Source: Piezodorus guildinii
Taxonomy: Eukaryota > Arthropoda > Insecta > Hemiptera > Pentatomidae
Direction of reading: 5' to 3'
DNA: 64,000 nt
NCBI GenBank assembly: GCA_023052935.1
Contig: CM041294.1
Coordinates: forward strand, 14,371,791-14,435,790
The translations under genes were made by a program, and so were the position numbers. Positions within the stretch are counted from its first letter, which is position 1; each line of letters begins with the position of its first letter. The notes under the pieces are model-generated. The model ran no database searches and was not told the DNA's origin. It was given only the letters and a program-made list of their open reading frames with translations. Of this stretch, positions 2,402 to 62,607 are shown piece by piece.

Positions 2402-3560
2402 CAGATGAGGAAGATGGTTGGGGGTGCGGTCATAAATTAAAAAACACAATTAAAAATAAGCGTTATTTTAATTATGTGCCGACGTTTCGGCCTACAATGT
2501 GGGCCTTCATCAGGGCTAAAAGAAACAAGATAACAACCAATGTAATTATAGACTTAATAATGCGTTAGGTATATAATAATAATATGACAGTAATAAATTA
2601 TGTGAAAATAAATAATATTAAATGTAAATGATAATAAGATGACAATTATAAAGTATGGAAATAAGGTGACAGTTATAAAGTATGGAAATAAACAAAATTA
2701 AGATGATAGTTATAAAGTATGGAAGTAGACATAATTGAGATGATAATATTGTAATGAGAATATATAAATAGAGACTAATGAAATGAAATGAAATGATAAA
2801 AAATGAAAAAAATAAAATGAATGAAAAAAAAATGAAAAAAATGATAAAGGAAATAAAAAAATGAAAAAAAATGATAAAGGAATGAAAAAAAAATGATAAA
2901 GGAAAAATATGTGAACAATTAAAATTTTAAATATTAACAATTTTGAGTTGATATATGACGGTAATATATTAAAAACATAGTTAAGAGAATAGGTAATATA
3001 TAAAAAAATATAGTCATTACAAAAGAGAAACAGTATGAATAAAAATTTAAATTTTAAAATAATGTAATATTAAACTAATAATTATATGTCAGGATATGTA
3101 ACGGAGAAAGATATGAGTATGGAAAGGGGGAGAAAGAAATGGGCGATGAAAAAAGACCCTTATCAATAAGAAAAAATACTTACATGACGTGCAAGCGTTG
3201 CCTACAGAAGTGATGTTTCCCAGTTTAAAAAACGCTCATTGCGTGGAACGGAAAACATGAGAACTAGAATGTCCGTTAGGAAAATTCCAAGAAGCTAAGT
3301 TATGTTTACTGATTCGATTGTTAAAAAATAGCCAAAAGTCATTACTTGAGAGTACTTGAGTTATTACTTATGAGTATTTGATAAAATTGTAAGAAATAGT
3401 GACGAGGTAAAGATTAAAAGATTTTAAGTAATAACGGATGACAATGATAAATGATGAATGATGATAAGGTAATAACGAATTATTATGTATTATCCGGTCA
3501 TATGGTTGTTTCAATAGGATTGATTGATAAATTTGTAGATAAACAACTAAGGAATACTTT
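2402..3560 (-). mobile_element. Ribozyme-bearing repeat (RZ-1), copy A
   Basis: A ~1.1-kb AT-rich repeat with no coding sequence. Its 3' end, on the minus strand, is at about 2402 (complement of GAGGAAGATGGTTGGGGGTG). It matches the reverse complement of 52190-54475, apart from that copy's nested insertions, and a short copy at 43598. A hammerhead-like motif lies ~75 nt from the end. Degenerate ~28-bp units around TTATAAAGTATGGAA occur at 2640-2730. The 76-codon minus-strand frame at 2710-2940 is a low-complexity artefact. Confidence 0.7.
2477..2517 (-). ncRNA. Hammerhead-like ribozyme motif H1
   Basis: On the minus strand: GCC, CTGATGA, one extra A, GGCC/GGCC hairpin, GAAA, CGTC, GGC. Stem I pairs GCC with GGC. 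The candidate cleavage triplet is GTC. Confidence 0.55.
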
Positions 3561-3954
3561 AAAAAATTTATGGAAATAAAATAGGCTAAAAATAATCAGT
3601 AAAAAAATATTTCAACAAAATTATATACTATTAAGAAGTAGTTATAACAATAAATTAAATATATTAATAACAACAATAATGAAAAAAATGAAAATATATT
3701 GAATAATTTAAACACCGACGTAAATAAATAGATTTTCGTCGTATTTATATTGTACTTAAACTCATAAAAAATAAAAACACTAAACACAATAAAAAAAATC
3801 GATTAGTTGCATTTCAGAAGTGTGGATCTATTAGAGAAAAATGCATGAAACTATTTTTCCTATTTTTGACCCTCACATTATTCAAAATTGCACTGCTCAT
3901 TATAATCAAAGAAGATTTTTCAGGAATTCGTTATTTATGGAAAAATAACTTTAT

Positions 3955-4470
3955 AAACATTTTTTTAAAGAAGAAAAATAACTTTATTCTGGGATTAAGT
4001 CCCCTAAGAATAAAATGAAATTTAACAATGTAAAATATTCACATCTGGCCTAGATACTAAATTAATGAGGAAAAAAGGAAAATAGATTTAACATTAGTAA
4101 AAATAAAATAAAAAAATAATGATAAGAAATAAATACATTTGGTGACAATATAATTAACTAATATTCAACGCTTTTGCTAAAACTAAAACAAAATGCACAA
4201 AAAAAAACACACACAAAGAGAACTACTAGTGTACATTTATTTCAACTTACTAAAACACTTTTAAAAATTAAAAGTATTGACTATCATTTAGCAGTAATTA
4301 TTATTGTCATATAGCGTCATTATGGGAAGTGAGAAGATACTGGAACAAAAGGTATTTGAAAGTGGAGAGAGAGGTTGCTCGACGGATGTTTGTTGGGAGA
4401 GAGAACTCCAAAAACTGGTGGAGCGGGCTAGAAAGGAACGTTGTTCAAACAAAAGTAAAATGTATTTCTT
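3955..4470 (-). pseudogene. CR1/L2-like LINE, 5'-truncated 3' end
   Basis: On the minus strand a frame around 4310-4450 reads SFLARSTSFWSSL, clearly related to FLARSTFFWNTL at the C-terminus of the LINE at 59196-60722. Downstream (minus sense), 3970-4010 matches that element's 3' UTR (AGGGGACTTAATCCCAGAAT versus AGGGACCTAGTCCCAGAATA). This is a short truncated copy of the same family. The coding part is frame-damaged and ends well before an intact stop context. Confidence 0.65.
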
Positions 4471-4499
4471 AATAAGTTTCATCAACACCTTTAATCTTT

Positions 4500-5560
4500 A
4501 TTGTATTTTATGACGTTTCGACGATTTTATTTATGAGCCCTAAAAAGGAGGTATAACTAAAGTATGTAAATTAGAATTGTTTTTTGTTTGTTTTTTTCGA
4601 TCAGGCCAATGAAGGATTACGCATTTTACACAAACAAAATTTCTTATTTTCCAAAAATATTTATATTCTGACTCTTATTAGTTCTTTTCTTTCCTCTGTC
4701 CTATTTCTACCAGGTTTGGATGGTTAGAAACCATTCATTGCAGATCAATTTTTCAATTTGTTTTTGTCCCTGTTTAAGAGCTTTCGTAATTCTTGAGATT
4801 TTGAGACATTTGTCAATATCTGTTGACAGTTTGTCCAGAAAAGAAAACGGCTGCACATTCTATACCTTTGATACTTTAAGTCAGGGTAAATTTTGTCTTA
4901 TTATCATGATGTTGCAACATTTAATTAAAATTTTTTTTTTAAATAATTAAAAATAGTATTTCCAGGATTTTTTTAGGCAACCCATTCTTAACATATTTTC
5001 TAATATACTAAATTTGTTATAAAATATGTTTCATTCTATTGTATTATCAGCTCGGTGCAGATCGTTTCAAGATCGAATCTCTCGACTATTCGTTTTGAGA
5101 AAATAAATATTGAGGATGGTGGTTATAAGAGATTGTAAAACAGTAAATAACTATTAATTAACATCCGGTGTTGGTTTCTCTCAGCCCTTTAAAAAAGCTG
5201 AAATCCGCATCCGCATCATGGTTCGACATTTTGGTTAATAAATATTTTTTTAATATTTTCTAATCTTTTATGACCGCCACTTGAACCATCTCATCTTTTA
5301 TATTTAACACGCTGTTAACTATTAACTATTTATATATCCTTAAAAAAAATTAAGCTATATCAAGAAAAGATTTTAACTGTATCACTTTTAAATATTTCTT
5401 GAACATACTAATTTAAGGTGTTTTGAAAAAGTAAACTAAATTACAGTATTCTGGTCATGTTCTGGGACTGTGAACTGTTATTTAAAAAAAAAAAAGTTTG
5501 TAGTCCTAAGACGCAAAAAAACTATAAAATATTTGCAAATAATCCCGGCTGATTACTATT
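4500..5560. other. AT-rich unclassified region
   Basis: Short open frames (for example 76 codons at 4720-4950) show no recognisable motif, biased composition or splice-linked partner. I see no repeat shared with the rest of the window. Confidence 0.35.
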
Positions 5561-5564
5561 ATTA

Positions 5565-5880
5565 TTTCCCTGGCCTCCTAAAAATGGCATCCTTAGCGGA
5601 GGTCATCAAGTTGATCCCTCGGAGGGCGGTCCAGTTTTTTAGAATCCGTGACTTACTATGATTGCCCCGGCAAAGGCACGACTCCTTGAGTTCCTTCAGA
5701 TCCCAGGCCGAGATACCGCCCCTCCCCCGGCCTACCTGTGCGAGGGTGGTCCTCATCCCTGACAATATAATGGCTCCTAGGATATCCTCCGGGGATGAAA
5801 TATACATGCCTCCGAATTATCATATCTTTACCCGGTAGATCCCACGATTGATGATCTTGTCTCCCGTTATAAGGCTTTTA
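5565..5880. other. GC-richer unclassified block, possible retroelement relic
   Basis: This stretch is clearly GC-richer than its neighbours and has short open frames on both strands (63 aa plus, 81 aa minus). No family motif is visible. It could be a decayed gag or other coding relic, or host sequence. No function is assigned. Confidence 0.25.
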
Positions 5881-6286
5881 TAACTGATAATTTTGGGCTA
5901 CCTGTATAAATAAATCATGAAGGTAAACATCCTTCCGCATATTTAAACAGATTGATTGAGTATTCTATTCCCTAGACAAACAAGTATCCTCTCAACAAAT
6001 GATAGAGAGAAATCATAATTTAGTATTTATTACAAAATTTACATGGACAGGAAAAAAAAATATTTTACTAATTTAATAAAAGTAATCCTAGGCTAAATTT
6101 GCATTCCATTAGGTTGCCAAATTATTGGCTGGTATGTTATATGAAATGTTTCATTAGATTCATCTTCGGAGTCCCCCAGACGCCCCAGCGCCTCCGACAG
6201 GTATGTCGAGTTGAAGTGGCTGAATCCAGTTTCTAGCCGACAGTATTTCTAGGGTGTTAATAATTGGGAAATTTTAATTTATTTTC

Positions 6287-8469: not shown

Positions 8470-9010
8470 TATTTCACAGAGAGATATGTATACAAACGTA
8501 TTCACTATATTTTTATTTTTCACACTTTAAGAAAGAATGGACATTTTGTACGTCATAGATTTATAACTTTTTTTCTCTTACTGTTAAAAGTATTTTTTTA
8601 ATTTTTTAACTTTATAATGTCTCACTATTATAACTATTTAATCACTATATTTTTTTTCATACTTTAAAAAGTTAACTACGATTAATTAATTAAAAGTTAT
8701 AAATTAATTAAAAACTGTAAAAAAAATAACACATCTTTTATTAAAATTTCTTTTCCCTCTTTTGTTTTAAGAAATTATTACATTTATCAATTGTCATTAC
8801 TACTATCACTTTGTTTGTAATCTTTAGTATAATTTATTTTTCTTATCATCTTTATATATTGTATTCCACTGCTGGTTGTTATCTTAGTTTTTCTTATAGC
8901 CCTGAAGAAGGCCTATAATTTAAGCCGAAACGTCGGCACCAATAAATTAAGTTTACGATTAATTGTGGGTTAAATTGACTGCACCCTCAATCAACTTCTC
9001 TCATATATAC
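8468..9010 (+). mobile_element. Ribozyme-bearing repeat (RZ-2)
   Basis: AT-rich, non-coding, with a hammerhead-like motif at 8898-8939. About 45 nt further on it has the block GACTGCACCCTCAATCA, closely related to GACCGCACCCCCAACCA at the end of RZ-1. The 5' boundary is not defined; the start given is simply the end of the microsatellite. Confidence 0.45.
8898..8939 (+). ncRNA. Hammerhead-like ribozyme motif H2
   Basis: GCC, CTGAAGA, extra A, GGC/GCC hairpin, GAAA, CGTC, GGC. Stem I is GCC/GGC. Candidate triplet GTC. Confidence 0.5.
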
Positions 9011-12661: not shown

Positions 12662-15340
12662 ATGACCTCACCTAATTCCTTATCCATTCTCCTTTGGAAT
12701 GCGAATGGTGTTAGAACTCACACTGACGAACTTACAGCCGTACTGCAGGACAAAAACATTGATGTTGCACTCATTACTGAAACTAGACTAACCACTAAAC
12801 AGTACTTTAAAATACCAGGATACACGACATACCGGACAGACCATCCAGACGGCAAAGCCCATGCCGGTACTGCTGTCATAGTCCGCCGATCCCTCACCCA
12901 TCACTTACACCCAATTTCCGCCCACGATTACCTACAAGCAACTTCCATCGTTATCAAAACCTTTTCCTTTCCGCTTATCATCGCATCAGCATACTGCCCT
13001 CCTAAACATCCCATTTCCTCTGCCCAATTTGGATCCTTCCTCAACTCCTTGGGTAATCACTTCATTTTGGGTGCAGACTTAAACGCTAAGAACCAACAGT
13101 GGGGTTCTAGAACCACCAATTCTCGTGGACGGACATTGCAGTCTGCACTCAACTCCCGACGCTTTCATCTCCTACCTCCCGATTCTCCTACCTACTGGCC
13201 AACAGATCCTAACCGTAATCCTGACATCCTCGACTTCTTCATCCACAGCGGATTAGGCTCTCTGAATTTTTCCATAGCTCGCCTTGATGAACTATCCTCT
13301 GATCATAGTCCATTGATTCTAAATGTATCCATAACACCTATTCCTAAACCTATCCCACCGTCATTCATTAGGGGCCCTGTCAACTGGAACCTCTTCCGCG
13401 AAATTCTCACTAATGATATTGACCTCAGAGTGATTCTCAAAACCCCAAATGACCTTGACGACGCCGTATATTCCTTTACAACCGCTATTCAACAAGCCGC
13501 CTGGACTGCCTCCTCTCCCAAACAATCCCAAATAATTCCTTACAAAAGCCATTTACCACAACACCTGACAGACCTCATCAACAGCAAACGTCGAGCTAGA
13601 ACATTATGGCAACGCACCCGCCACCCAGAAGATCGCCGCTCCTATAATTTTTTTTGTAGAAAATTAAAGCGGGAGTTGGCGATCTTCCGTTCCCAATCCT
13701 ACAATACCTACCTCTCCTCTCTCTCGACTCGTGACAATTCCCTGTGGAATGTCACGAAGAGAATCCTAAAATCCCACACCATTTCCCATCCTCTCCGGCG
13801 CTGTGATGGTTCCTGGGCTGCTTCTGACAAGCATAAGGCCGAGGAATTCGCACAGCACCTTTCCAAAGTTTTTACTCCTCATCCAGAGCTTAATCCAACC
13901 CATACTGCAGCAGTTGAAGAGTTCCTCACGTCACCAATACCACTATCCTTACCACCTAAAGCAGTTAATCCCTCTGAGGTCAGATATCTTCTTAAAAAGC
14001 TTCCTCTTCGCAAATCTCCTGGATACGATCTCCTTACTCCCCAAATCTTAAGACAACTTCCACCTAAAGCCATTACATTCCTTACATATCTCTATAACTG
14101 TATCCTACGCACTACCTATTTTCCTCTCTTATGGAAACATTCAACTATGATCCTTTTCCTAAAACCAGGCAAACCTTCTAACAACACGTCATCTTACAGA
14201 CCTATCAGCCTACTTCCGATCCTCTCAAAAATTTTCGAAAAGCTCCTACTAAAACGAATCCTAGCCAAATTTCAAAATTTTCCTTCACATCAGTTCGGAT
14301 TTCGTCCTCAACATTCCACGGTTCAGCAAGGACTCCGAGTTGTAGACCACATTTCCTCCGCCCTTGAGTGCAAGGAGTATTGTTCGGGTGCCTTTCTGGA
14401 CATAGCTCAAGCTTTTGACCGGGTGTGGCACCCGGGACTGCTCTTTAAGCTCAAAACCCATTTACCTCAATCCTTATACCTAATCCTCCGATCCTATTTA
14501 TCCAACCGCTCCTTCCGAGTTCGCTGTGGTTCCGAATTTTCCGAACAATATACTGTTGAGGCCGGTGTTCCTCAAGGCAGCGTCTTAGGACCCGTCCTCT
14601 ACATCCTCTTCACCGCCGATATCCCTACCGACCCCAATACCTTTCTGGCAACATTTGCTGATGACACAGCCATTTTATCATCCGATTCCGATCCTGAAGC
14701 AGCATCGCTAAATCTCCAAAAGCACCTTTCCCTTGTCGAAGACTGGTGCAATGCTTGGCGCATTAAGGTTAACGAAAGCAAATGCACTCACGTCACATTC
14801 ACCCTTCGACGCAAATCCTGTCCAACGGTTAATTTCAATTCTATACCGCTTCCTTCCTCAGACACAGTCCGGTATCTCGGCTTTTTACTAGACAAAAGAC
14901 TGACGTGGAACCCACATACAAGACTAAAAAGAAAAGAACTCAACCGCAGATTCGGCCAGTTATACAGACTACTAAACAGAAAATCTCATCTTACAGTTGA
15001 CAACAAATTACTAATATACAAGACAGTACTGAAACCTATATGGACCTACGGACTTGAACTGTGGGGGACAGCTAAACATTCTAACATTAAACGCATCCAA
15101 TCCTTCCAATCCAAAGTCCTCCGAACAATAGTTAATGCTCCTTATTACGTTACCAACTGTACCCTACACCATGACCTTAATATTCCGTTTGTTTTAGACC
15201 TGGTACCATCCAAATTTTCCAAATTTCATCAGAACCTTAGTCATCATCCTAACCCTCTAGCACAATCCCTATCCAGCACCACCCATCCCTACAATCCTCC
15301 TCGAAGATTGAAACGGCAGTGGCCACGAGACCTATTGTAA
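12662..15340 (+). CDS. LINE ORF2: endonuclease-reverse transcriptase (jockey clade)
   Basis: An uninterrupted 892-aa protein that nicks target DNA and reverse-transcribes the element RNA. The N-terminal ~220 residues form an APE-type endonuclease: LLWNANGV near 8, LITETRL with the metal-binding Glu near 40, GADLNAKNQQWGSR near 138 and SSDHSPLIL near 213. RT motifs follow: YRPISLLPILSKIFEKLL, HQFGFRPQHST, LDIAQAFDRVWH, AGVPQGSVLGPVLY and the catalytic FADD near 665. The C-terminal region (PIWTYGLELWG, IQSFQSKVLR, RRLKRQWPRDLL) is shared with the other jockey pieces here. Every key residue I can check is present and the length is normal, so this copy could be recent. It begins immediately after the ORF1 stop (TAAATG), suggesting termination-reinitiation. 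Its own 3' UTR is displaced and inverted, which would probably block further retrotransposition. Confidence 0.95.
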   Translation: MTSPNSLSILLWNANGVRTHTDELTAVLQDKNIDVALITETRLTTKQYFKIPGYTTYRTDHPDGKAHAGTAVIVRRSLTHHLHPISAHDYLQATSIVIKTFSFPLIIASAYCPPKHPISSAQFGSFLNSLGNHFILGADLNAKNQQWGSRTTNSRGRTLQSALNSRRFHLLPPDSPTYWPTDPNRNPDILDFFIHSGLGSLNFSIARLDELSSDHSPLILNVSITPIPKPIPPSFIRGPVNWNLFREILTNDIDLRVILKTPNDLDDAVYSFTTAIQQAAWTASSPKQSQIIPYKSHLPQHLTDLINSKRRARTLWQRTRHPEDRRSYNFFCRKLKRELAIFRSQSYNTYLSSLSTRDNSLWNVTKRILKSHTISHPLRRCDGSWAASDKHKAEEFAQHLSKVFTPHPELNPTHTAAVEEFLTSPIPLSLPPKAVNPSEVRYLLKKLPLRKSPGYDLLTPQILRQLPPKAITFLTYLYNCILRTTYFPLLWKHSTMILFLKPGKPSNNTSSYRPISLLPILSKIFEKLLLKRILAKFQNFPSHQFGFRPQHSTVQQGLRVVDHISSALECKEYCSGAFLDIAQAFDRVWHPGLLFKLKTHLPQSLYLILRSYLSNRSFRVRCGSEFSEQYTVEAGVPQGSVLGPVLYILFTADIPTDPNTFLATFADDTAILSSDSDPEAASLNLQKHLSLVEDWCNAWRIKVNESKCTHVTFTLRRKSCPTVNFNSIPLPSSDTVRYLGFLLDKRLTWNPHTRLKRKELNRRFGQLYRLLNRKSHLTVDNKLLIYKTVLKPIWTYGLELWGTAKHSNIKRIQSFQSKVLRTIVNAPYYVTNCTLHHDLNIPFVLDLVPSKFSKFHQNLSHHPNPLAQSLSSTTHPYNPPRRLKRQWPRDLL

Positions 15341-19537: not shown

Positions 19538-19914
19538 CATAATGTTTATTTATGAATATATTATTCGGAACAGTCTCTTCTTATTTGTTTATATATTTAT
19601 TTATCATAACACATAAAACATGATTATTAAAACATTACGTTTCGAGGTAACTTATGCCTCATCTTCAGATTTTCAAATATCATATTTATTTCCATATTGT
19701 ATCCCGAAATAGATAAATTACTATTGTAGTATTATTCATATTAAGTTCCTAGATATGAATAATTCTGTTAAAATTTATCTTTTCATTGTCACATATTAAT
19801 TATCTCAACCTTTTGTTGCTATGCACTAGCAACTATCATGTGGTTATCTATTCATATATAGGAACTTAATATGAATAATGCTACAATAGTAATTGATATA
19901 ACATAATGTTTATT
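19538..19914 (-). mobile_element. Ribozyme-bearing mini-element RZ-3 (351 bp) with 13-bp TSD
   Basis: Insert 19551-19901 is flanked by CATAATGTTTATT at 19538-19550 and 19902-19914, inside the 3' UTR of an I-like LINE. It is non-coding. It contains motif H3 about 82 nt from its minus-strand 3' end and an inverted repeat of ~46-bp arms (19722-19768 / 19850-19896). A related copy is at about 49375-49760 (plus). Confidence 0.8.
19633..19672 (-). ncRNA. Hammerhead-like ribozyme motif H3
   Basis: Minus strand: AT, CTGAAGA, extra T, GAGG/CCTC hairpin, GAAA, CGTA, AT. Candidate triplet GTA. Stem I is weak (AT/AT). Confidence 0.5.
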
Positions 19915-23900: not shown

Positions 23901-24104
23901 CCTGTAAAAACCTTATAGATATAGTGGTGGATTTTTTTTTTTTTTTAACATCTAATGTAATAGGATAATGTTAAACTTAAGAAAGAAACTAAAAAAATGC
24001 AAATACTCGTTGACGGTAAGAAGATAAGAAATGTTTTTATTTTTTTGTTTTTATTTTAATCGAATAAAGAATGTGTGATAATATTATTAAATAACTACTT
24101 TGAA

Positions 24105-24375
24105 AAGTGACCCTTGTAGAGTAGTGAATACATAACAGCCTTCTATGCCCAAGATCATGGGTTCAAATCCGCAGGTGGCCCTAGGATTTTTAATGGGAGT
24201 AAAAAATCCCTTGTTATGCTGTCCTTCGGAGGGGGCGTTAAAAGGGGGTCCCAAGTCAGTGCGATGTCAGGTAAAGATCCCTATCTCAATTTAGGACTCC
24301 TACTGTAGCATCCTCCGAATAGCCACAGGAGCATTAAGTGACGTGGAATAAGTAAAATTAACTTCCATCTTCCCA
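24105..24375 (+). mobile_element. tRNA-derived SINE, family 2
   Basis: The head has GGGTTCAAATCCGCAGGT. The body contains TTTTTAATGGGAGTAAAAAA, GTCAGTGCGATGTCAGGTA and GTAGCATCCTCCGAATAGCC, as in the copies at 33529-33819 and 39988-40281. The A box is poorly conserved. Confidence 0.8.
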
Positions 24376-26712: not shown

Positions 26713-26865
26713 TTAGTGAACTAAATCCCTTAAAATGTAAAAATTGCATGGGTAATAAAAGGTCAGATATCCTGAAATATATATTGTTTGATCAGTTCTC
26801 GACTGCTGAAAATTTAAGTTTCTGTTGTTCTCAGGTTTCAGTCAATGAATAAACAATTTTATGTA

Positions 26866-26904
26866 TGCGACGTTTCGAGAATTTATTGTTCTCTTAATCA
26901 TGCA
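26866..26904 (-). ncRNA. Hammerhead-like ribozyme motif H4
   Basis: Minus strand: TGC, ATGATTA, extra A, GAGAA/TTCTC hairpin, GAAA, CGTC, GCA. Stem I is TGC/GCA. Positions 3 and 8 are A and T, a compensated pair. Confidence 0.5.
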
Positions 26905-26984
26905 ACTTTGGACCAAATAGTGTCTTAATTAGACATGTGTAGTCCACAAACTTTGAAAGAACGAAAAATAGTAGTTTGTAGACT

Positions 26985-28901
26985 ACGCATGTCTAATTTT
27001 TATTTAAAAGAAATTTACAACTGTATTACAATAAAATACAATAAGTAAATGTGCTAATAGATCAAGTGGGCGTGATACAGGCATGTGAAGAAACTACCCA
27101 GTGGTAGCACTTCAAAGTTTATTCAGCTAAGTAGGTCTCGAGGCCATCGTCTTTTCAGCCGCCTAGGAAGATGATCAGGAATAGGAGATGAGAGTTTGCG
27201 GACGAGTGGGTTGGAGTGGACGGGTAATTTGGAATAAAAGGAGGAATATCTAGTTCGGGCTAGATCTGCGACTAATGGGATATTTAGGTCTTTATGAATT
27301 ATTTTATTGGTGACAAAGTAAGGGGCGTTTAGGATCTTTCGGAGGATTTTGGATTGCAAGGATTGAATGCGGGAAGAATTGGATGGTTTGGTGGATCCCC
27401 ATAACTCAATCCCATATGTCCAAATAGGCCTAATGATGGTTATATAAATTAATTTTTTGTAGTATGTGGAAAGTTTTGATCGTTTGTCCAGTAAGTGTTG
27501 TAGTAAGCGGTATCTACGAGCTGTTTCTTGTCGTTTCAGTCTAGTGTGAGGATTCCAAGTAAGACGTTTGTCTAGATGGAGTCCTAGGTACCGGATCTGT
27601 TCAACTGAGGTGAGTGGAATATTGTTAAAGGAAATAGTGGGACAGGCGGACATAGGTTTTCGACGAAGGGTGAAGGTAATTTGATGGGATTTAGTAGGGT
27701 TGATTTTAATTCTCCACTTTTGACACCATTCTTCAATGGAAGAAATGTGGGACTGAAGGGTTTTGGAAGCAACAGATGGGTCATTATTTACGGATAACAC
27801 ACAAGTGTCATCTGCGTAGGTTGTGAGGACAGTACCAGGATGGATTGGAATATCAGCTGTATATATGGTATAAAGGATTGGGCCCAAAATACTACCCTGA
27901 GGTACACCAGCGGACTGAGGAAATATGGATGAGTAGGAAAGGTTATGACTTACTTTAAAGGTTCTATCAGTGAGGATAGGATCGGATTAATAAGAAGTAC
28001 GTAGGAGAGAGGAATTGGCGAAGTTTGTAGAGCAGCCCTGGGTGCCAAACCCGGTCAAAGGCTGTTGTACGTCAAGAAAGGCTCCAGTGCAATACATCCC
28101 GCGCTCCAATGTAGAAGATATCACATCCACCACACGGTGACACTGTTGTATAGTGGAATGGGATGAGCGAAATCCAAACTAGTGGTCAGGAATCACATGG
28201 TTAATATCTAGGATTGGGTATATACGTTTAAGGAGCAGTTTTTCTAGGATTTTCCCCATAATGGGCAAAAGAGAGATAGGACGGTATGAAGATGGGTTTT
28301 CAAGAGGCTTTTTAGGCTTAGGGAGCATTTTGATGATTGAAAATTTCCAAGGATCAGGAAAATAAGTGGAACGCAGCGTGGCATTATATATATAGCAGAG
28401 GATGAGTATGGCTTTTCTGGGAAGCTGTTTCAGGATGCGGGGCGTGATGAGATCGTGGCCAGGAGCTTTTTTGGATGGTAATCTTTGGATGAGGCTAATA
28501 ATTTCTGAAGGGTGAAAGGCCTTGGGAGGAAGGGTCATTTGGAGTGGAACAGTTAGTTCTGCTTCAACATGTTGAATATGGATCGGATCAAGGATATCAG
28601 GATGCGGATTAAACGTTTTAGAAAGGTGTTCACCAAAGATTTGGGATTTTTCTTCATCGGATTTCGTCCAGGTCTGGGAATCAGTGAGAAGTGGATGATT
28701 AAAGGATTTGTATTTTAGTAATGTTGCAGTTGTTTTCCATAAAGATTTGTCTGAAGTAGTTAAGGTTTCTGTAAAGTTCTGAAATTATTTTGAATTTTCG
28801 TATTTCTGTTTTTAATTTGTTAGTTAGTTTACTGTAATGGGTTTTGTCTCAAGGATATCTGGTTCTATGCCACTTTGCTCTTGCTCGACGCATGTCTAAT
28901 T
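26985..28901 (-). mobile_element. Jockey-clade LINE (subfamily A), 5'-truncated, 1.9 kb
   Basis: Insertion 26999-28887, flanked by ACGCATGTCTAATT at 26985-26998 and 28888-28901. On the minus strand it runs from the endonuclease-RT linker through the RT domain to a 3' UTR ending TTGTAAATTTCTTTTAAATA. Confidence 0.9.
27123..28538 (-). pseudogene. Jockey reverse transcriptase, disrupted
   Basis: Two open segments. 28179-28538 covers PPKAFHPSEIISLIQRLPSK and SSYRPISLLPIMGKILEKLL. 27123-27887 begins at GPILYTIYTADIP, contains the catalytic YADD (TTYADDTCVL) and continues to PRRLKRRWPRDLLS. Between them, about 27890-28180, the region of motifs FGF and FDRVWH is present but broken by frameshifts and a stop. 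RT motifs are recognisable, so this is a fairly young truncated copy. The endonuclease is absent. Confidence 0.9.
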
Positions 28902-28924
28902 AAGACACTATTTTGTCCAAAATT

Positions 28925-28962
28925 ACAGATTATGAGAACAATAAATTCTCGAAACGTCGCAT
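28925..28962 (+). ncRNA. Hammerhead-like ribozyme motif H5, degenerate
   Basis: GAGAA/TTCTC hairpin, GAAA, CGTC, GCAT retained. The upstream core reads AGATTAT instead of ATGATTAT, so probably inactive. Confidence 0.35.
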
Positions 28963-29056
28963 AGATAAAATTGTTTTTTCTTTGACTGAAACTTCAGAAC
29001 AACAGAAACTTTATATATATTGTATTTGTAAATAATAAAAACTGGAGAGTGTGAAA

Positions 29057-32813: not shown

Positions 32814-33518
32814 TCGTTAACATTGAATTATGTCAAGCTGTTGGGTAAATATTTAAAATAAAAGGAAAGAAATGCTATATAAAAGGTATGTTTTTTAATT
32901 AAAATAAATGTTAAATTTAAAACGTAACAGTTTTATTAAATAATCCATGAATTGTCTGAATTTTCATATTTTGGTTAGGTTAACGATTCCTTATCAGTCA
33001 ATACTTATGTACATTACAACTAAGTACCTTTAAATGCATCTGAGAACTAGTATGGATTTTGTTTAATGATAAAGAAATAATCATTAGATTGCATTGTATA
33101 AACTAAAAAATATTGCATTGAGAACTGAAAAAGTAATCTTCATAACAATAGTATTTAAAAACTTCAGAAGGAGTCAATAATCCTCATTAGAAACTATTTC
33201 TCATCACGTTCCCTTTTGTTATATCTATAATATAGATGTATATGTCAATGTATTTTTTTTTATTATTAAATTATTATATCATTACTGTTATTTTTTATAA
33301 TGATGATGAAATATCAGTGGATCTAACTTATATCTTTTCCATTAGCGCTTAACATCGCATAAGATGATAAAGCACTCAATGACTGTTTTATGGCAAGTAG
33401 AGTTGCTCAATTAAACAGTGGATCGTTGTCTTGTTTTTAAGCGACGAAAACCTAGATGTGGTTGCACTATATTTTTGGTAGTTTTACAATAAATGCTTTT
33501 GGTTTATTATTTTCAATA
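32814..33518. other. AT-rich spacer
   Basis: No recognised feature. The last ~50 bp belong to the repeat shared with 18895-19025. Confidence 0.4.
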
Positions 33519-33829
33519 ATGAACCTTTGTTTGTTTGTTTATTCGTTTAACGTCACTTTATGCTACTAAGGCTAATCGGACGATGCTACAATGGGAGTCC
33601 TAAATTTTGACTATCCAAGTTTTATTAGGATAGGGATCTTTAACGAGTACCTGACATCGCACAGGCTCGGGATCACCTTTTAACGTCCCTTCCGAAGAAC
33701 GGCATAACTAAGGATTTTTTACTCCCATTAAAAAATTCCTAGGGTCACCCGCAGGTTTGAACCCGTGACCTTTGGCATAGAAAGCTGTTATGCTAGCAAC
33801 TACGCTATGGGTGACCCCTATGAACATTT
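33519..33829 (-). mobile_element. tRNA-derived SINE, family 2, full length
   Basis: SINE 33529-33819 with the duplication ATGAACCTTT / ATGAACATTT. On the minus strand: tRNA-like head with B box GGTTCAAACC, body with GTCAGGTACTCGTTAAAGAT, and tail CATAAAGTGACGTTAAACGA ending in (AAAC)n. The unoccupied version of the site is at 18908-18917. Confidence 0.92.
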
Positions 33830-34231
33830 ATAATCGGCCAAAAAAAAAAAAAATTACCACCCCCACAATAATTGAGAGCTTACGTTTCAAGATGCGTAGA
33901 ATCCGAATGACGAATAAGAAAAAAAATACGTTTCTCCTAAGCTATATAAACAGTTATACCCTAAAATTGTTATTCGGAAATAATAAGCCATTGTGTAATA
34001 ATTTTTTTATTTTGATTTCTATCCCGTTCTAATGAATTCATTTCGGTAAAAAAAATAATACTATTGTTTTCAACTTGATAAGTTTAAACCGGCTGTAAAA
34101 TGATCTAATCCTAATATTTAGGTACTTATAGTACAAACAACTTATATATATTGTTTGATCAGTTCTCGACTGTTGATAATTTAAATTTGTGTTGTTCTCA
34201 GGTTTCAGTCAATGAATAAACAATTTTATCT

Positions 34232-34270
34232 ATGCGACGTTTCGAGAATTTATTGTTCTCATAATCATGC
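34232..34270 (-). ncRNA. Hammerhead-like ribozyme motif H6
   Basis: Minus strand: TGC, ATGATTA, extra T, GAGAA/TTCTC, GAAA, CGTC, GCA. Compensated A3/T8. Confidence 0.5.
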
Positions 34271-34403
34271 AATTTTGGACAAAATATTGTCTTAATTAGA
34301 CATGTTCAGCCTACAAACTTTGAAAGAACACTGAAACAGAACAGTGTTCTTTCAAAGTTTGTAGGCTAAACATGTCTAATTAAGACACTATTTTGTCCAA
34401 AAT

Positions 34404-34442
34404 TGCATGATTATGAGAACAATAAATTCTCGAAACGTCGCA
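34404..34442 (+). ncRNA. Hammerhead-like ribozyme motif H7
   Basis: Plus-strand counterpart of H6 in the other arm, with the same core and stems. Confidence 0.5.
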
Positions 34443-34489
34443 TAGATAAAATTTTTTATTCATTGACTGAAACTTGAAAACAACACAAA

Positions 34490-34529
<40 letters not shown>

Positions 34530-39950: not shown

Positions 39951-39978
39951 GGTGACTTGTGTCTTGTGACTTGAAATA

Positions 39979-40290
39979 ACAATTGTTGCGAGGGATCACT
40001 TGTAGCTGGTTGGCTAGCATAACAGCCTCCTATGCCTAAGGTCACGGGTTCAAACCCGCAGGGGGTCCAAAGAATTTTAAATGGGAATAAAAAAAATCTT
40101 AGTTATACTGTCCTCCGGAGGGGACGTTAAAAGGTGATCCCGAGCCTGTGCGATGTCAGATACTCGTTAAAGATCTCTATCCTAAATAACCTGGATAGGC
40201 TAAATTTAGGACTCCCACTGTAGCATCGTCCGATTAGCCATAGTAGCATAAAGTGACGTTAAATAAATAAACAAACAAACAACGATTGTT
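39979..40290 (+). mobile_element. tRNA-derived SINE, family 2, full length
   Basis: SINE 39988-40281 with duplication ACAATTGTT / ACGATTGTT. Head with TAGCTGGTTGGCTAGCATAA and B box GGTTCAAACC. Tail AAATAAATAAACAAACAAAC. It lies just upstream of motif H8, inside an older ribozyme repeat. Confidence 0.88.
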
Positions 40291-40294: not shown

Positions 40295-40335
40295 CACCCT
40301 GAAAATGGCATAAAATTTAGGCCGAAACGTTGGCA
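40295..40335 (+). ncRNA. Hammerhead-like ribozyme motif H8
   Basis: CC, CTGAAAA, extra T, GGC/GCC hairpin, GAAA, CGTT, GG. The 3-8 pair is C/A, so probably decayed. The downstream block ACACAGTCAACCATTCTCAC resembles the 3' region after H2. Confidence 0.4.
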
Positions 40336-43597: not shown

Positions 43598-43736
43598 AAA
43601 TAGGTTAGGAAGATGGTTGAGTGTGAGGTCATAAATTAGAAACACACATTTAAAATAAGTGCTATTTTAATTATGTGCCGACGTTTCGACCTACAATGTG
43701 GGCCTTCATCAGGGTTGATTCTGAGACGCTGTCTAA
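43598..43736 (-). mobile_element. Ribozyme repeat RZ-1, 3' fragment (empty mariner site)
   Basis: Minus-strand end of RZ-1 with motif H9. The sequence around 43660 is the unoccupied equivalent of the site that holds the mariner at 53515-54413. Confidence 0.8.
43677..43714 (-). ncRNA. Hammerhead-like ribozyme motif H9
   Basis: As H1 but with stem GGCC/GGTC, a G-T wobble that keeps pairing. Candidate triplet GTC. Confidence 0.5.
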
Positions 43737-49374: not shown

Positions 49375-49760
49375 AAAATAAAATTTATTTTAATAGATTG
49401 ACATGATAATTCGTATATAGGGGCTATGTATGAATAATAGTACATTATTATATGACCTATATTATGATATAATATGGAAATATATGTAAGTAGAATTTTT
49501 AATAAAGTTTTTTGTATAAACAGAATTTTAAATATTGTAGGTGATAAATGAATTCTAAATTATTGATAATTTTGTTATTGTTTGCATGGTTACTTATAAT
49601 ATTGAATTGTATTTTAGATGATTTTTAATGATTGAAGATGAGGCATAGAAAGTACCTCGAAACGTTACGTTGTTATTTAATCAAGTTTTATAAATGATAT
49701 AATAAATAAATATATAAATAAAAAGAAGAGATTGTTCCAAATAATACATTCATAATTAAA
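49375..49760 (+). mobile_element. Ribozyme mini-element RZ-3, second copy
   Basis: Plus-strand relative of 19551-19901, sharing GAGGCAT...CCTCGAAACG and the 3' end GAAGAGATTGTTCC...ATTCATA. The left boundary is approximate. Confidence 0.6.
49629..49672 (+). ncRNA. Hammerhead-like ribozyme motif H10
   Basis: TTGAAGA, extra T, GAGG...CCTC hairpin, GAAA, CGTT. Position 3 is T opposite G8. Stem I is not clear. Confidence 0.35.
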
Positions 49761-52150: not shown

Positions 52151-52752
52151 TCAAAATTCATCAAAATAAATTCGACATTTAATTTAATTAAATTCGTTAT
52201 TAGCTAATCGTCATTTATTATCGTCATCCGTTATTACTTAATATCTTTTAATCTTTACCTCGTCACTATTTCTTACAATTTTATCAAAAATTTAAGTAAT
52301 AACTCAAGTACTCTCAAGAAGTAACTTTTGGCTATTTTTTAACAATCGAATCAGTAAACATAACTTAGCATCTTGGAAAAGTCCTAACGGAGATTCTAAT
52401 TCTCATATTTTCCGTTTCCACGCAATGAGCGTTTTTTAAACTGGGAAACATCACTCCTTTAGGCAGCGTCTTCAGGACAGAGTCAAGTATGTATCTTTTT
52501 TCTTATTGATAAGGATCTTTTTTCATCGCCCATTTCTTTCTCCCTCTTTCCATACTCATATCTTTCTCCGTTACATATCCTGACATATAATTATTAGTTT
52601 AATATTACATTATTTTAAAATTTAATTTCTTTTCTTTTTTAATTTTTGTGGAAGTTTTCTTAATTGGAACATTCAATAAAGCACCCACTACCTTCCATTC
52701 ATCATCCAATTACTTTATTTCCTAAGTCTTTTAACACCTTTTTTTTCGTCTT

Positions 52753-52790
52753 AGTCGACGTTTCGGGGTTATTTCCCCATTTTCAAGACT
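52753..52790 (-). ncRNA. Hammerhead-like ribozyme motif H11
   Basis: Minus strand: AGTC, TTGAAAA, extra T, GGGG/CCCC hairpin, GAAA, CGTC, GACT. Compensated T3/A8. Confidence 0.55.
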
Positions 52791-52884
52791 GAAACTTATT
52801 CCTCACAGTGAGCCAATAGACAAGTAGCAGTGTGCTATAAGATGTAATGAAGAATGAAAAATTTTGTAGCAAGGAATAAGTTTC

Positions 52885-52923
52885 AGTCTTGAAAATGGGG
52901 AAACAACCCCGAAACGTCGACTA
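52885..52923 (+). ncRNA. Hammerhead-like ribozyme motif H12
   Basis: Plus-strand counterpart of H11. Stem I AGTC/GACT has four pairs. Confidence 0.55.
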
Positions 52924-53460
52924 AGATGAAAAAAAAGGTGTTAAAAGATTTAAGAAATAAAGTAATTTGATGATGAATGGAAGGTAGTGGGTGCTTTATT
53001 GAATGTTTAAAATTTAAATTATTTTTTATTCATACTGTTTCTATTTTGTAATGACTATGTTCTTTTTTATATATTACCTATACTCTTAACTATGTTTTTA
53101 ATATATTACCGTCATATATTACTTCGAAATTGTCAATATTTAAAATTTTAATTGTTCACATATTTTTCCGTTGTCATTTTTTTTATTTGCTTAGTCTCTC
53201 TTTATATATTCTCATTACAATATTATCATCTCAATTATGTTTACTTCCATACTTTATAACTATCATCTTAATGTTGTTTATTTCCATACTTTATAACTGT
53301 CACCTTATTTCCATACTTTATAATTGTCACCTTATTTCCATACTTTATAATTGTCATCTTAATATCATTTTACATTTAATTTTATTTATGTTCCCATAAT
53401 TTATTAAAGTCATATTATTATTATATACCTAATTACATTGGTTGTTATCTTGTTTCTCTT

Positions 53461-53500
53461 AGCCCTGATGAAGGCCCACATTGTAGGCCGAAACGTCGGC
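53461..53500 (+). ncRNA. Hammerhead-like ribozyme motif H13
   Basis: GCC, CTGATGA, extra A, GGCC/GGCC, GAAA, CGTC, GGC. Best-preserved copy of the RZ-1 type, 13 bp from the mariner insertion. Confidence 0.58.
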
Positions 53501-53512
53501 ACATAATTAAAA

Positions 53513-54415
53513 TATTGGGTTGATGCAAAATTAATGCAGGTTTCCTCTATTGCAATATCTTAATTCCAATTGTGTAAACAAAGCTAATCCTAACATTGAT
53601 CATTATTATACCAAAACAAACCTTATCTAATACCCTCTCTTTCATCATGAATTTGTTTAGTAAAATCGTTTTGTTCAGTGTGTTCAAAGGTCTTGAATCG
53701 AAAATGTCAAAGTGCGATTTTCGTCAAATTTATTTTTACGAATTTAAATTAGGGCGCAGCGCTGCGCAAACGGCTCGTAATATTAATGAAGTGTGGGGTC
53801 AGGGGGCTATTAATGAGTGCACGGTGCAGCGTTGGTTCCAGAAGTTTCGCAGAGGAGATTTCGACCTCGAAGACAAGGAAGGTCGGGGCCGTCATCTTGC
53901 TCTGGACAACGACCAGCTGAGGTCAAAAGTGGAAGAAGACCCGACCAAAACCACACGAGAAATGGCGGCGGAACTCGGAACTCAAAAATTGCAACGTCTT
54001 TGCCCAGCATTGATGAATCGGAAGGGGCCGATCCTGCTCCACGATAACGCCAGACCACACGTTGCACAACCAACGCTTCGACGACTGCACGAGTTGGGCT
54101 ACGAAGTTCTCCAACATCCGCCTTATTCATCTGACCTCTCTCCTACAGACTTCCACTTTTTCAGGCGTCTGGACAACTTTTTGAGGGAGAAAAATTTTCA
54201 AAACCAGGACGACATTGAAAATTCTTTTCGTGATTTCATTGAGTCCAGGGATTCGGATTTTTTTTCTGGTGGAATAAGAAAGCTTGTTGAACGTTGGCAA
54301 AAGTGCATTGATTCAGATGGAAATTATTTTGTTTAAATATATATGGTTAAAGTAAAGATATGGCGTATTTACAATACCTACTAAAAACCTGCATTAATTT
54401 TGCATCAACCCAATA
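53513..54415 (+). mobile_element. Mariner element (second family), TA-flanked
   Basis: 899-bp element at 53515-54413, TIRs TTGGGTTGATGCAAAATTAA, TA on both sides. Different TIR sequence from the 1158/45623 family. The paralogous RZ-1 copy at 43660 shows the empty site. Confidence 0.95.
53704..54336 (+). CDS. Mariner transposase with in-frame internal deletion
   Basis: An open 210-aa protein. The frame opens at 53596, but the Met at 53704 (MSKCDFRQIYFYEFKLGRSA) matches the usual mariner start. The N-terminal helix-turn-helix pair is kept (GRSAAQTARNINEVWG, EDPTKTTREMAAELG). Then about 120 residues, including the first catalytic Asp, are missing, and the frame continues in register at KLQRLCPALMNRKGPILLHD. 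The second Asp (LHDNARPH) and third Asp (YSSDLSPTD) are present with 34 residues between them (DD34D). No stop or frameshift. It cannot catalyse transposition, but the open frame with a DNA-binding domain could act as a TIR-binding repressor. That role is inference only. Confidence 0.85.
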   Translation: MSKCDFRQIYFYEFKLGRSAAQTARNINEVWGQGAINECTVQRWFQKFRRGDFDLEDKEGRGRHLALDNDQLRSKVEEDPTKTTREMAAELGTQKLQRLCPALMNRKGPILLHDNARPHVAQPTLRRLHELGYEVLQHPPYSSDLSPTDFHFFRRLDNFLREKNFQNQDDIENSFRDFIESRDSDFFSGGIRKLVERWQKCIDSDGNYFV

Positions 54416-54475
54416 ACACTTATTTTAAATGTGTGTTTCTAATTTATGACCGCACCCCCAACCATCTTCCTCATT

Positions 54476-54542
54476 TAATTTAATTAGGGCAAAATAATAC
54501 CCCTTCGACAGAATATAACACCATCAAAGACTCAGTGGCGGA

Positions 54543-56734: not shown

Positions 56735-57200
56735 TTAGTCCGGGCCGCGGTCATTAAATGAAACAACTAAATAGTTTCAACTATTTTATTGTTTGCCAAC
56801 ATTTCGACCCCCATTGTGGGTCATCATCAGGACTAAAAAGATACATTCAAAATAAGATTAAATATACTATTTTAAAAACTATTGCGCTAGAGAATGTCAA
56901 TATTATAACATAAAAGGAACTAGATGTGTAAAGAAATCGATTAATTAAATTACAATGACAAAGGTATACTAATGAGAGCTATACAGAACAGATAATGATT
57001 AAAGATAATGTACAAATATATAAGAAAAAATTACATGAAATAAAAAAAATAAATAAAAAAACATTGAAAACTGGAGTACAGTGGAGATACGTACCGTGTT
57101 GTAGGCGAATGGAAACTAGGTGCAATTTGGTACTATGGAATATAGGCAGGTAGATAGGAAAGTACTCCTTCCAGTAAGTCTTAACGGTCAACTAATTATA
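56735..57200 (-). mobile_element. Ribozyme-bearing repeat (RZ-6)
   Basis: Non-coding, with motif H14 about 60 nt from the minus-strand end (TGACCGCGGCCCGGACTAAT). The 5' boundary is uncertain. Confidence 0.5.
56795..56834 (-). ncRNA. Hammerhead-like ribozyme motif H14
   Basis: Minus strand: GTC, CTGATGA, extra T, GACCC/GGGTC hairpin, GAAA, TGTT, GGC. Stem I GTC/GGC uses a G-T pair. Confidence 0.52.
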
Positions 57201-58228: not shown

Positions 58229-58850
58229 TTATTTACGCCTTATAACTTTCTGGCCTATTCTGGTTCGAACGAGATTATAAAAAAAGAATTAGCAAACCCC
58301 AATTGTACGTGATTATAGGGTTCTCGATTTATATCTAACCATGGCTGTTTGACCCGTCGAAATACTGTGCGTTTGGTTCAATAAAATTGGATAAATTTGT
58401 ACTTTTTTGCCAGTCTAATGATACAGGAACTAGGAAACCCCCGTAGCACTTTTTGAGATGGAAGACCACACACCTTTACTATAGACATGATAGGTTGCCT
58501 CGATGACCGGCCAAGGTTGTAGCTACCGCAGGATTTCGGCCTCCCATTACCTCCTCAAGGAGAAAACGATCTTGGAAGAGTAAACAACTTCGTTGGTCTG
58601 TCCTGTAATCTACCATGCGACTGTTTGTAAAAGGTTTAGAGTAACGCATAGGTTGTTATTACTTTTCAATTATTCCTGTCATCGAGAGTTTGTGGGAAAT
58701 GATATGTTACTTTTTCAATTAGAGCAATTTTCGACTGTTAAATTGCAGGACACACGCTAACTGTTGGTAGATTTTTAAGTTAATAGCTGGCATGATCAGC
58801 TTGATGGAGAGGAAAAATATTCTTTTTTACTGAAAATTTCTTATTGATCT
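58229..58850. other. Unclassified spacer
   Basis: No frame or repeat recognised. Confidence 0.35.
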
Positions 58851-61078: not shown

Positions 61079-61401
61079 AAAAACTAAAATTTTTCCCTGA
61101 CTGGGAAAAGCAGAAGATCATGGATTTTTTAATCTATAATCTACTTATTTTTCCAGGCTAAATTTTATATAACAAAAAATGTTCTCCATTAAATTTCTGA
61201 TTTGGGAGCTGTTGTCAAAATTATTTCAGCAACATCAACAAAGGTAGAACGTGCGAAAAAAACCGCCGACTCTAAAAACATCTAAGCAAAACGTACTTTT
61301 TCCTTTTAGAAACAAATAGCTTACAAACAGCAAGTTAACAGATAAATGTTTTATACACAAATAACTTCAAATTTTCGATGCGAGGAGCACAAAAACAGCT
61401 T
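61079..61401. other. AT-rich spacer
   Basis: No recognised feature. Confidence 0.4.
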
Positions 61402-61712
61402 TTTACAGTAAGGGAAAGTATTGCGATCGTGAAAATTTTCGAATTCCAGTTTTCAACGAAAATACACGTTCTAGGGTCCCCTGAGTCCAAATAATCAAGT
61501 CCCGCAAAAAGGTGTGTGTGTGTGATAACTCCTATGAAACTGAAATTTCATATTTAAGACAAATATACGCCCGAGACGTTACAAAACCTTTTTCATCAAA
61601 ATTAGCTTACTAGAAGAGCTACTTTATACAATGAATTTTGCACCTTTTTTCGATTTTCTCGAAAACGGTTCCGACGATTTCGATTAAACTCGCTATATCT
61701 ATGTAAAATTTA
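61402..61712 (+). repeat. R880 copy 5, 5' part
   Basis: Starts slightly truncated at CAGTAAGGGAAAGTATTGCG. Interrupted at the duplication ATGTAAAATTTA and resumes at 62689. Confidence 0.85.
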
Positions 61713-61763
61713 TTATAGGTGGAATAGTCAGGAATCAGTCATTTTTGAAAAGTTTTTAATTTT

Positions 61764-61804
61764 GCCAACGTTTCGGCTCAAGCTTGTGAGCCATCATCAA
61801 GGCT
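61764..61804 (-). ncRNA. Hammerhead-like ribozyme motif H15
   Basis: Minus strand: GCC, TTGATGA, extra T, GGCTC/GAGCC hairpin, GAAA, CGTT, GGC. Stem I GCC/GGC. T3-G8 wobble. Confidence 0.52.
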
Positions 61805-62569
61805 ACAAACATCAGAACAAAAGAGATACATATTAATATGATAATGAAAATTTTTTCTGAATTTAGTGACAATGATAACATTTGAAATAAAACAGAAAAT
61901 ATACCAACATACTTAAATATTATAGATACAAATAATGATAATATGATACATAATCTGATGATGATAAGCATAACAAATTTTTACAGAACTTTAGACTTTA
62001 ATATAAAAGTAAAAAAAAAAAAAAAAAAACATATATATATAAACGTACCATTACTGAGCCATGTCCAAGCATAAACTGAGGAAAACCATAAACATAGGTA
62101 GTATGGGGAGGGGTTCGTGTAAAAACCCTGAAGGTTTTCCCCTCTAAGTGTAAATACTACAGCTTATCTTTGTTTTTAAAAAGTTTTACAAAATTATATA
62201 ATGGAAAAAACAAAATAATATATCCGTATGTACAATAAGGTTGAACATTTTTAACAGAAAATTATAAACACTAGAATCTGAGGTATTTAAAAGATCATGA
62301 GGTATATAATAAAAAACAAAATAAAATAAATAAATAACAAAAACAAGAACCAGAGGTGTTGTAAACAAAAAGATAAATATACAGTAAATAAATAAAATAT
62401 ACATTACACAAGCAATTTGTACAATAAAGTGATAGAGTTATAATTTAAGGAGACGGAAGATGTTAGCATACGAGGGAGAAATTATCTCTTTGTCAGTTTT
62501 ATGATTTACGGGAACTTGATCTTTTTCCATATGGATATATATAGCTTCGGAGATGGCTCACAAGCATAT

Positions 62570-62607
62570 ATGATGATGGCTCACAAGCTTGAGCCGAAAC
62601 GTTGGCA
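62570..62607 (+). ncRNA. Hammerhead-like ribozyme motif H16
   Basis: Same hairpin and 3' part as H15, but the upstream strand (ATAT) no longer pairs with GGC, and position 3 is A opposite G. Probably inactive as a monomer. Confidence 0.4.

What the first reader, a model, noticed from the sequence alone, without database searches (positions are those of the whole stretch)
2477..62607. Sixteen hammerhead-ribozyme-like motifs scattered through small repeats
Seen: 16 sites share (C/T)TGANGA or close variants, a hairpin whose first pair is always G-C, GAAA, then (C/T)GT and A, C or T. The hairpin differs between families yet stays paired: GGCC/GGCC, GGC/GCC, GACCC/GGGTC, GGCTC/GAGCC, GAGAA/TTCTC, GAGG/CCTC, GGGG/CCCC. 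The outer stem also changes with pairing kept: GCC/GGC, GTC/GGC, TGC/GCA, AGTC/GACT. The base after GT is never G, as the NUH cleavage rule demands. Known: hammerhead ribozymes occur in Penelope-like elements and retrozymes. Inference: these are type I hammerheads whose ACGT stem III is self-complementary and would favour a dimeric fold.
Basis: partly seen in the sequence, partly recalled or inferred. Interest (0 to 1): 0.88.

Follow-up and report, generated by a model that had tools for sequence, protein, structure and literature searches.

The report
Penelope-element hammerhead ribozymes, insect genome
The sixteen small RNA-cutting motifs are real and match the known "minimal hammerhead ribozymes" of Penelope-like jumping elements, here in non-coding remnant and miniature copies, with one unexpected twist: a base pair in the supposedly fixed catalytic core has changed partner in whole families.

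Summary
Confirmed. A pairing-based scan finds exactly the 16 sites, against 0.09 expected; a covariance model separates them from the rest (E up to 1.2e-6, next 0.85). They are minimal type I hammerheads of Penelope-like elements (PLEs) in a 1.2-Gb insect, probably hemipteran, genome. In the same genome the family-D motif flanks an open frame of 941 aa with a GIY-YIG match. Family D in the window is a solo inverted-repeat PLE insertion with a 12-bp AT-only target duplication and a 44-bp one-sided tail. D, E and F carry outward-facing hammerheads in inverted arms; whole D, E1 and F transcripts have no predicted stem II, so a dimer is unlikely there in situ. The extra base before stem II is the rule in this genome: 24,369 matches with it, 143 without. 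What may be new is that the 3-8 core pair covaries: C-G 17,075, U-A 5,386, C.A 620, U.G 589, and A-U in 95 of 100 listed rows of a family-E-type pattern. Copies are relatives, so independent changes may be few. Cleavage was not tested; two key papers were not readable.

The parts
2481..2513 (-). H1, family A hammerhead (C3-G8, inserted A)
8902..8934 (+). H2, relative of family A (C3-G8, inserted A)
19636..19668 (-). H3, family B (C3-G8, inserted T)
26869..26901 (-). H4, family E, left arm of E2 (A3-U8, inserted A)
28926..28958 (+). H5, family E, right arm of E2 (5' side decayed)
34236..34268 (-). H6, family E, left arm of E1 (A3-U8)
34407..34439 (+). H7, family E, right arm of E1 (A3-U8)
40299..40331 (+). 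H8, family C, next to a SINE-like repeat (C3.A8, stem I short)
43680..43712 (-). H9, family A fragment (C3-G8)
49632..49666 (+). H10, family B (U3.G8, first stem I pair broken)
52757..52786 (-). H11, family D, left arm (U3-A8)
52889..52918 (+). H12, family D, right arm (U3-A8)
53465..53497 (+). H13, family A hammerhead of copy A2 (C3-G8)
56798..56830 (-). H14, single family in the window (C3-G8; GAAATGTT)
61767..61800 (-). H15, family F, left arm (U3.G8 here; most listed genome rows with the same hairpin are C3-G8)
62570..62603 (+). H16, family F, right arm (5' side decayed)
52626..53005 (.). Element D, 380 bp: inverted pLTR ends of a PLE; arms 52668-52803 and 52872-53007; left end carries a 44-bp extra tail
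52614..52625 (.). Left copy of D target duplication TTTAAAATTTAA (right copy 53006-53017)
   Evidence: single copy at the empty site within 2980-3110
34152..34492 (.). Element E1, 341 bp foldback, arms 151 bp at 96%, 8 nt between; about 31-bp tail on the left; duplication ambiguous in TA repeats
26788..29012 (.). Element E2, same family as E1, with a LINE inserted; duplication ambiguous
61713..62687 (.). Element F, 975 bp, inverted 98-bp arms, 30-bp tail on the right
61700..61712 (.). Left copy of F target duplication TATGTAAAATTTA (right copy 62688-62700)
52191..54471 (+). Family A copy A2, with D and a mariner nested in it; 15-bp duplication CATTTAATTTAATTA at 52176-52190 and 54472-54486
2400..3481 (-). 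Family A copy A1 (no target duplication found)

Best explanation
The 16 motifs are the minimal type I hammerhead ribozymes that Penelope-like elements carry in their pseudo-LTRs. In the window they survive in non-coding PLE remnants and miniature elements. Mechanism: a PLE protein (reverse transcriptase plus GIY-YIG endonuclease) nicks AT-rich DNA and starts cDNA synthesis at one of two internal sites about 27-44 nt apart, 53-131 nt downstream of the hammerhead cut site. When both strands of the target are extended, two pseudo-LTR ends are laid down head to head, hammerheads facing outward, with a tail on one end and a 12-13 bp duplication. Some of these (D, E) then recur as mini-elements. The ribozyme, where intact and in tandem pLTR-ORF-pLTR copies, probably processes the RNA, perhaps as a dimer or helped by the protein. 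In the inverted miniatures it is probably masked. Shown here: motif, PLE association of family D, tails, duplications, outward polarity. Inferred: PLE origin of the other families, the two-strand insertion route, dimer use, masking in vivo. Not shown: cleavage.
For: GIY-YIG search of the window's own genome: 103 matches listed (150 of 2,216 candidates scored), stop-to-stop frames up to 961 aa. Of 20 GIY-YIG loci that I chose from that list, 20 hold at least one hammerhead motif; of the 8 loci returned automatically, some of them overlapping those 20 or each other, 7 do, L058 not. L074: hammerhead, 941-aa frame, hammerhead in direct order plus an inverted one; the hammerhead is that of family D, and the GIY-YIG match in this frame has 30.6 bits (cut-off 22.6). 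The 941-aa protein aligns over nearly its whole length (36% identity) with a homologue that has a GIY-YIG domain; other homologues have a reverse transcriptase domain. D left arm and tail align with PLE sequence leading into the frame. Tails 44, 30, 31 and 27 bp (D, F, E1, E2) and AT-rich duplications of 12, 13 and 15 bp (D, F, A2) fit the optional 30-40 bp tail and AT target of PMC11167929 (main-text section read) and the inverted pLTRs with a 31-bp tail of PMC3846280 (passages). Polarity: among the first 100 of 1,052 genome-wide D sites, successive sites within 1 kb are outward in 16, direct in 2, inward in 0.
Against: No cleavage assay or RNA data. Only family D is tied to a PLE frame by sequence; for A, B, C, E, F and H14 no frame was found in the loci held, and no genome search for one was made. 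Family A (one hammerhead, about 1 kb of AT-rich DNA) could be another kind of non-autonomous element. E1, E2 and a third copy in L075 share their ends, so E was copied as a palindrome, which the two-strand model does not by itself explain; PMC3846280 proposes self-priming instead. Its duplications are 8-10 bp, some insertions having none; those here are 12-15. In PMC11167929 hammerhead mutants did not affect insertion. Pfam scans of the 941-aa protein itself report no family at all, neither RT nor GIY-YIG, up to E 5; the GIY-YIG match comes from the six-frame search. Stem II of H13, a single-hammerhead copy, is also predicted at only 0.15 in a 220-nt context.
Confidence: 0.88

Rival explanations
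1. The small repeats are animal retrozymes: non-autonomous retroelements with type I hammerheads that spread as small circular RNAs.
For: Small, non-coding, type I hammerheads, animal genome (PMC7229834, passages).
Against: That paper describes short tandem repeats of 150-450 bp. In the window the same-family pairs D, E1, E2 and F are inverted, listed genome neighbours are outward 16, direct 2, inward 0, and family D is a PLE fragment.
Confidence: 0.06
2. Foldback or MITE-like DNA transposons that happen to carry a hammerhead-like palindrome in their terminal inverted repeats.
For: Long inverted arms; E copied as a palindrome.
Against: Ends are asymmetric by a 27-44 bp tail and duplications vary (12, 13, 15 bp), unlike a cut-and-paste element with fixed duplication; D derives from a PLE.
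Confidence: 0.03
3. GAAACGT plus the hairpin is kept as a protein-binding or priming signal of the PLE, not as a ribozyme. This is compatible with the PLE identity and differs only in function.
For: In PMC11167929 hammerhead mutants still insert; D and E lack canonical C3 and G8.
Against: Stem I, stem II, a variable N7 and the 3-8 covariation follow the hammerhead fold, including non-helical core positions.
Confidence: 0.12

Closest known systems
Minimal hammerhead ribozymes of Penelope-like elements (Cervera and De la Pena 2014; Lunse, Weinberg and Breaker 2017; both seen only in reference lists and through reviews)
   Same: Type I, no real stem III, in PLE pseudo-LTRs, thousands per genome
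   Different: Whole families here have U3-A8 or A3-U8 instead of C3-G8; whether those papers record this could not be checked
PAc, Poseidon element of Anolis carolinensis (PMC11167929)
   Same: pLTR hammerhead, optional 30-40 bp tail, AT-rich target, GIY-YIG plus RT protein
   Different: C3 and G8 are described as conserved there; the PAc frame begins at stem II, that of L074 about 100 nt or more downstream; tandem repeats there, many head-to-head miniatures here
Adineta vaga Penelope elements (PMC3846280)
   Same: Inverted pLTRs, mostly head-to-head, optional tail on one inverted pLTR, unrelated sequences captured between solo pLTRs
   Different: Low copy number there; duplications of 8-10 bp or none; the word ribozyme does not occur in that text
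Metazoan retrozymes (PMC7229834)
   Same: Non-autonomous, type I hammerheads
   Different: Tandem repeats with canonical hammerheads; here inverted pairs and minimal hammerheads

Membership tests
Hammerhead ribozyme, type I | CUGAnGA, stem II, GAA, NUH and stem I in type I order | tested here: met
   10 of 16 have at least 3 contiguous stem I pairs
Hammerhead ribozyme, type I | Canonical C3 and G8 | tested here: not met
   Window: C-G in 6 of 16 (H1, H2, H3, H9, H13, H14), A-U 3, U-A 2, other 5. As a pair it covaries genome-wide
Hammerhead ribozyme, type I | Covarying stems | tested here: met
   10 rows (8 window families plus 2 from L063 and L069): stem I 28 of 30 cells paired vs 17.2 shuffled, P 5e-5 (8 distinct rows 22 of 24, P 3e-4); stem II 30 of 30 vs 23.1, P 1e-4 (4 distinct rows 12 of 12, P 0.04; biased, because the scan required pairing)
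Hammerhead ribozyme, type I | Self-cleavage | not testable with these tools
   needs a transcription assay
Penelope-like element | ORF with RT and GIY-YIG endonuclease | tested here: met
   For family D only, elsewhere in the same genome: GIY-YIG in six-frame search, RT domain in homologues; hmmscan of the 941-aa frame itself reports neither. No PLE frame seen in the window
Penelope-like element | pLTRs, direct or inverted, with optional one-sided tail of about 30-40 bp | tested here: met
   for D, E, F; single-hammerhead families not resolved
Penelope-like element | Variable, AT-rich target duplication | tested here: met
   D 12, F 13, A2 15 bp; E ambiguous; A1 none found
Animal retrozyme | Short tandem repeats of 150-450 bp, circular RNA | tested here: not met
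   inverted pairs in the window; circular RNA not testable

The most novel reading that the evidence does not exclude
The C3-G8 pair of the hammerhead core, usually described as conserved, has been replaced in nature by U3-A8 (family D and a GGCAAAGAGCC-hairpin family) and A3-U8 (family E), each in thousands of PLE copies, one of them flanking a 941-aa open PLE frame. This would be comparative proof of the 3-8 base pair and a natural collection of re-paired hammerheads, perhaps tolerated because PLE hammerheads are protein-assisted.
Probability: 0.45. Interest if true: 0.62.

Novelty: new variant of a known kind. Interest (0 to 1): 0.45.

Why it matters
PLE hammerheads are known, but their in vivo role is called a mystery (PMC7761336, passages). 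This genome has tens of thousands, in several families, with open-frame and miniature forms side by side. That makes two questions testable: whether a hammerhead with a swapped core pair still cuts, and whether PLEs make head-to-head miniatures by extending both strands of the target. The Rfam copy used here reported none of these sites.

Tried and rejected
Rfam as evidence: rejected after the positive control failed. Retrozyme and MITE readings: rejected on orientation, tail and duplications. Viral hammerheads with U3-A8, A3-U8 or C3.A8: three collection scans gave 22, 5 and 5 stretches, of which 0, 0 and 0 have a stem III of 3 bp and a stem I of 4 bp by script, against 16 of 22 (one extra base), 17 of 26 (none) and 0 of 6 (two) for the canonical core. 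So viruses give no support for the core swap. G3-C8: 0 genome matches. H17 never G: kept only as weak evidence. Genome-wide counts come from relatives, so the 3-8 association is not a count of independent events; the minimum is one change for U-A and one for A-U. Pfam and NCBIfam on the PLE frames gave little (GIY-YIG only in a 366-aa frame of L069), and no solved structure matched. Structure prediction was not run. Papers not held: PMC5785218, PMC4209133, PMC5850863, PMC8557442. Literature searches on the core pair: 'C3-G8' with hammerhead gave 0 papers; G8C/C3G gave 11, of which among the 10 listed only PMC11167929 held all three terms. Penelope with stink bug gave 0; a Hemiptera search listed nothing that by title covers this (10 of 42 listed). 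These do not show that the variation is unpublished.

In the table I used one row per family in its best-preserved form. For stem I, H5, H9, H10 and H16, which pair worse, and the further genome copies were left out; H3 and H8 were included with their mismatches.
Full report
OBSERVATION. The 16 sites are real. A scan that required only GAAA(C/T)GT, a hairpin and a CTGANGA-like heptamer returned exactly 16 on both strands, against a mean of 0.09 in 200 shuffles. A covariance model leaves a gap from E 1.2e-6 to 0.85. All 16 have one base, A or T, between A9 and stem II. In 10 of 16 stem I has three or more contiguous pairs; the rest are weaker or decayed. Rfam found none, but it also found none in viral three-stem hammerheads, so this says nothing.

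WHAT IT IS. The closest named relatives of a LINE frame in the window are an entry labelled Pantoea sp. Taur (77% identity; possibly host sequence in a symbiont assembly) and the water scorpion Ranatra chinensis (53-57%), so the host is probably a hemipteran; this is inference. Its own genome, 1.203 Gb in 434 contigs, could be searched. GIY-YIG matches listed number 103 (150 of 2,216 candidates scored), in stop-to-stop frames up to 961 aa. Of 20 such loci chosen from that list, 20 hold at least one hammerhead motif; of the 8 loci returned automatically, some overlapping, 7 do. In L074 a 941-aa frame lies between two direct hammerheads, with a third inverted one, and that hammerhead is the family-D motif of the window. 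The protein aligns over nearly its length (36%) with a homologue that has a GIY-YIG domain, and other homologues have a reverse transcriptase domain; hmmscan of the 941-aa protein itself reports neither. This is the architecture of Penelope-like elements as described in PMC11167929 and PMC3846280.

THE WINDOW COPIES. Families: A (H1, H9, H13, with H2 related), B (H3, H10), C (H8), D (H11, H12), E (H4-H7), F (H15, H16) and single H14. D, E1, E2 and F are pairs of inverted arms, 98-151 bp in D, E1 and F and 84+40 bp in E2. D can be read against its empty site in another copy of family A: 380 bp with TTTAAAATTTAA duplicated; F is 975 bp with TATGTAAAATTTA duplicated; A2 has a 15-bp duplication; E is ambiguous in TA repeats and A1 shows none. 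One end of each pair is longer than the other by 44 (D), 30 (F), 31 (E1) and 27 (E2) bp. The D tail aligns with PLE sequence running to the start of the frame. PMC11167929 reports that such tails lie between two internal initiation sites and that its PLE protein extends both target strands (main-text section). Two-strand extension would give head-to-head ends with hammerheads outward, as seen here; this step is inference. Among the first 100 of 1,052 D-motif sites genome-wide, successive sites within 1 kb are outward in 16, direct in 2, inward in 0. PMC3846280 calls head-to-head the most frequent arrangement, suggests self-priming, and reports duplications of 8-10 bp or none (passages), so the 12-15 bp here are longer.

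FUNCTION IN SITU. As RNA, 34183-34492 (most of E1) and 52634-53007 (most of D) fold into long hairpins of -223 and -229 kcal/mol. The predicted probability of stem II of the sense hammerhead is 0 in whole D, E1 and F, but near 1 for most pairs in the D or E1 right arm alone; in a single-hammerhead copy (H13, 220 nt) it is only 0.15. E2 was not folded. So the miniatures are probably silent as ribozymes when transcribed whole, and the dimer idea applies to tandem copies.

THE EXTRA BASE. The generic pattern with one extra base matches 24,369 times genome-wide, its reversed control 5. With no extra base it matches 143 times, control 2, and some of these rows are also one-base forms. Two extra bases were not searched in the genome. 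[quoted passage not shown] Viral contigs hold both forms with three stems: 16 of 22 loci with one extra base, 17 of 26 with none, 0 of 6 with two. So the base is a fixed habit of this lineage, not a new structure.

THE CORE PAIR. Within the generic pattern, positions 3-8 are C-G 17,075, U-A 5,386, C.A 620, U.G 589 and G-C 0; these sum to 23,670 of 24,369. In the first 100 rows: C-G 77, U-A 13, U.G 3, C.C 3, A.G 2, C.U 2, C.A 0. A second pattern with GAG/CTC in stem II matches 2,833 times; reading its first 100 rows by eye, 95 are A3-U8, 2 C-G, 1 U-A, 1 U.U and 1 A.A. In the exact D motif, position 8 is A in 99 of the first 100 rows while position 7 varies (A 69, G 28, T 3; rows, counted by eye). 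So three Watson-Crick pairs are each common in large families while C.A and U.G are few. Against: copies in a family are relatives, so the independent events may be as few as two; the mismatches could be decay of C-G copies, and their number, about 3.5% each of the C-G copies, is not shown to be lower than at neutral positions; a PLE with an open frame (L063 type) changes U4 instead and keeps C3-G8, so core drift is not confined to pairs; viral scans found no such swap; and no activity is known. PMC11167929 reports that C3G or G8C abolishes cleavage of the PAc hammerhead and the double change partly restores it, which makes re-pairing plausible.

DENSITY. 40 kb of genome (8 stretches of 5 kb cut from a random list of 140 positions) held 1 site against 16 in this 64-kb window, so the window is rich, though the sample is small.

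VERDICT. Ordinary in kind (PLE hammerheads), well supported, with a core-pair variant that deserves a bench test. Confidence in the identity is set at 0.88 because only family D is tied to a PLE frame by sequence.

Noticed in passing
12662-15340 (+): Open 892-aa LINE frame (endonuclease plus reverse transcriptase); related fragments elsewhere in the window.
   Followed up: partly
26985-28901: LINE fragment inserted in the right arm of E2 with a 14-bp duplication ACGCATGTCTAATT.
   Followed up: partly
53578-54336 (+): Mariner-type transposase frame nested inside family A copy A2.
   Followed up: no
63627-63797: Tandem array of a 21/42-bp unit, about 8 copies.
   Followed up: no
39974-40290, 33465-33834, 24089-24356: Dispersed repeat that looks like a SINE (tRNA-like by eye); H8 lies just after one copy's tail.
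   Followed up: no
L063 4773, 8464 and sites in L061-L081: PLE family with open frames of up to 961 aa whose hammerhead core reads CAGAAGA, that is U4 changed to A.
   Followed up: no
L005, L008, L010, L012, L022 (viral contigs): Three-stem hammerheads with one extra base before stem II, not reported by Rfam in the ones tested (L005, L012, L022).
   Followed up: partly
L032 1318-1377 and 1810-1867 (-): Two twister-P5 ribozymes in a viral contig that also holds a hammerhead-like site.
   Followed up: no
34274-34402: MicroRNA-family hits below cut-off lie in the E1 palindrome.
   Followed up: partly
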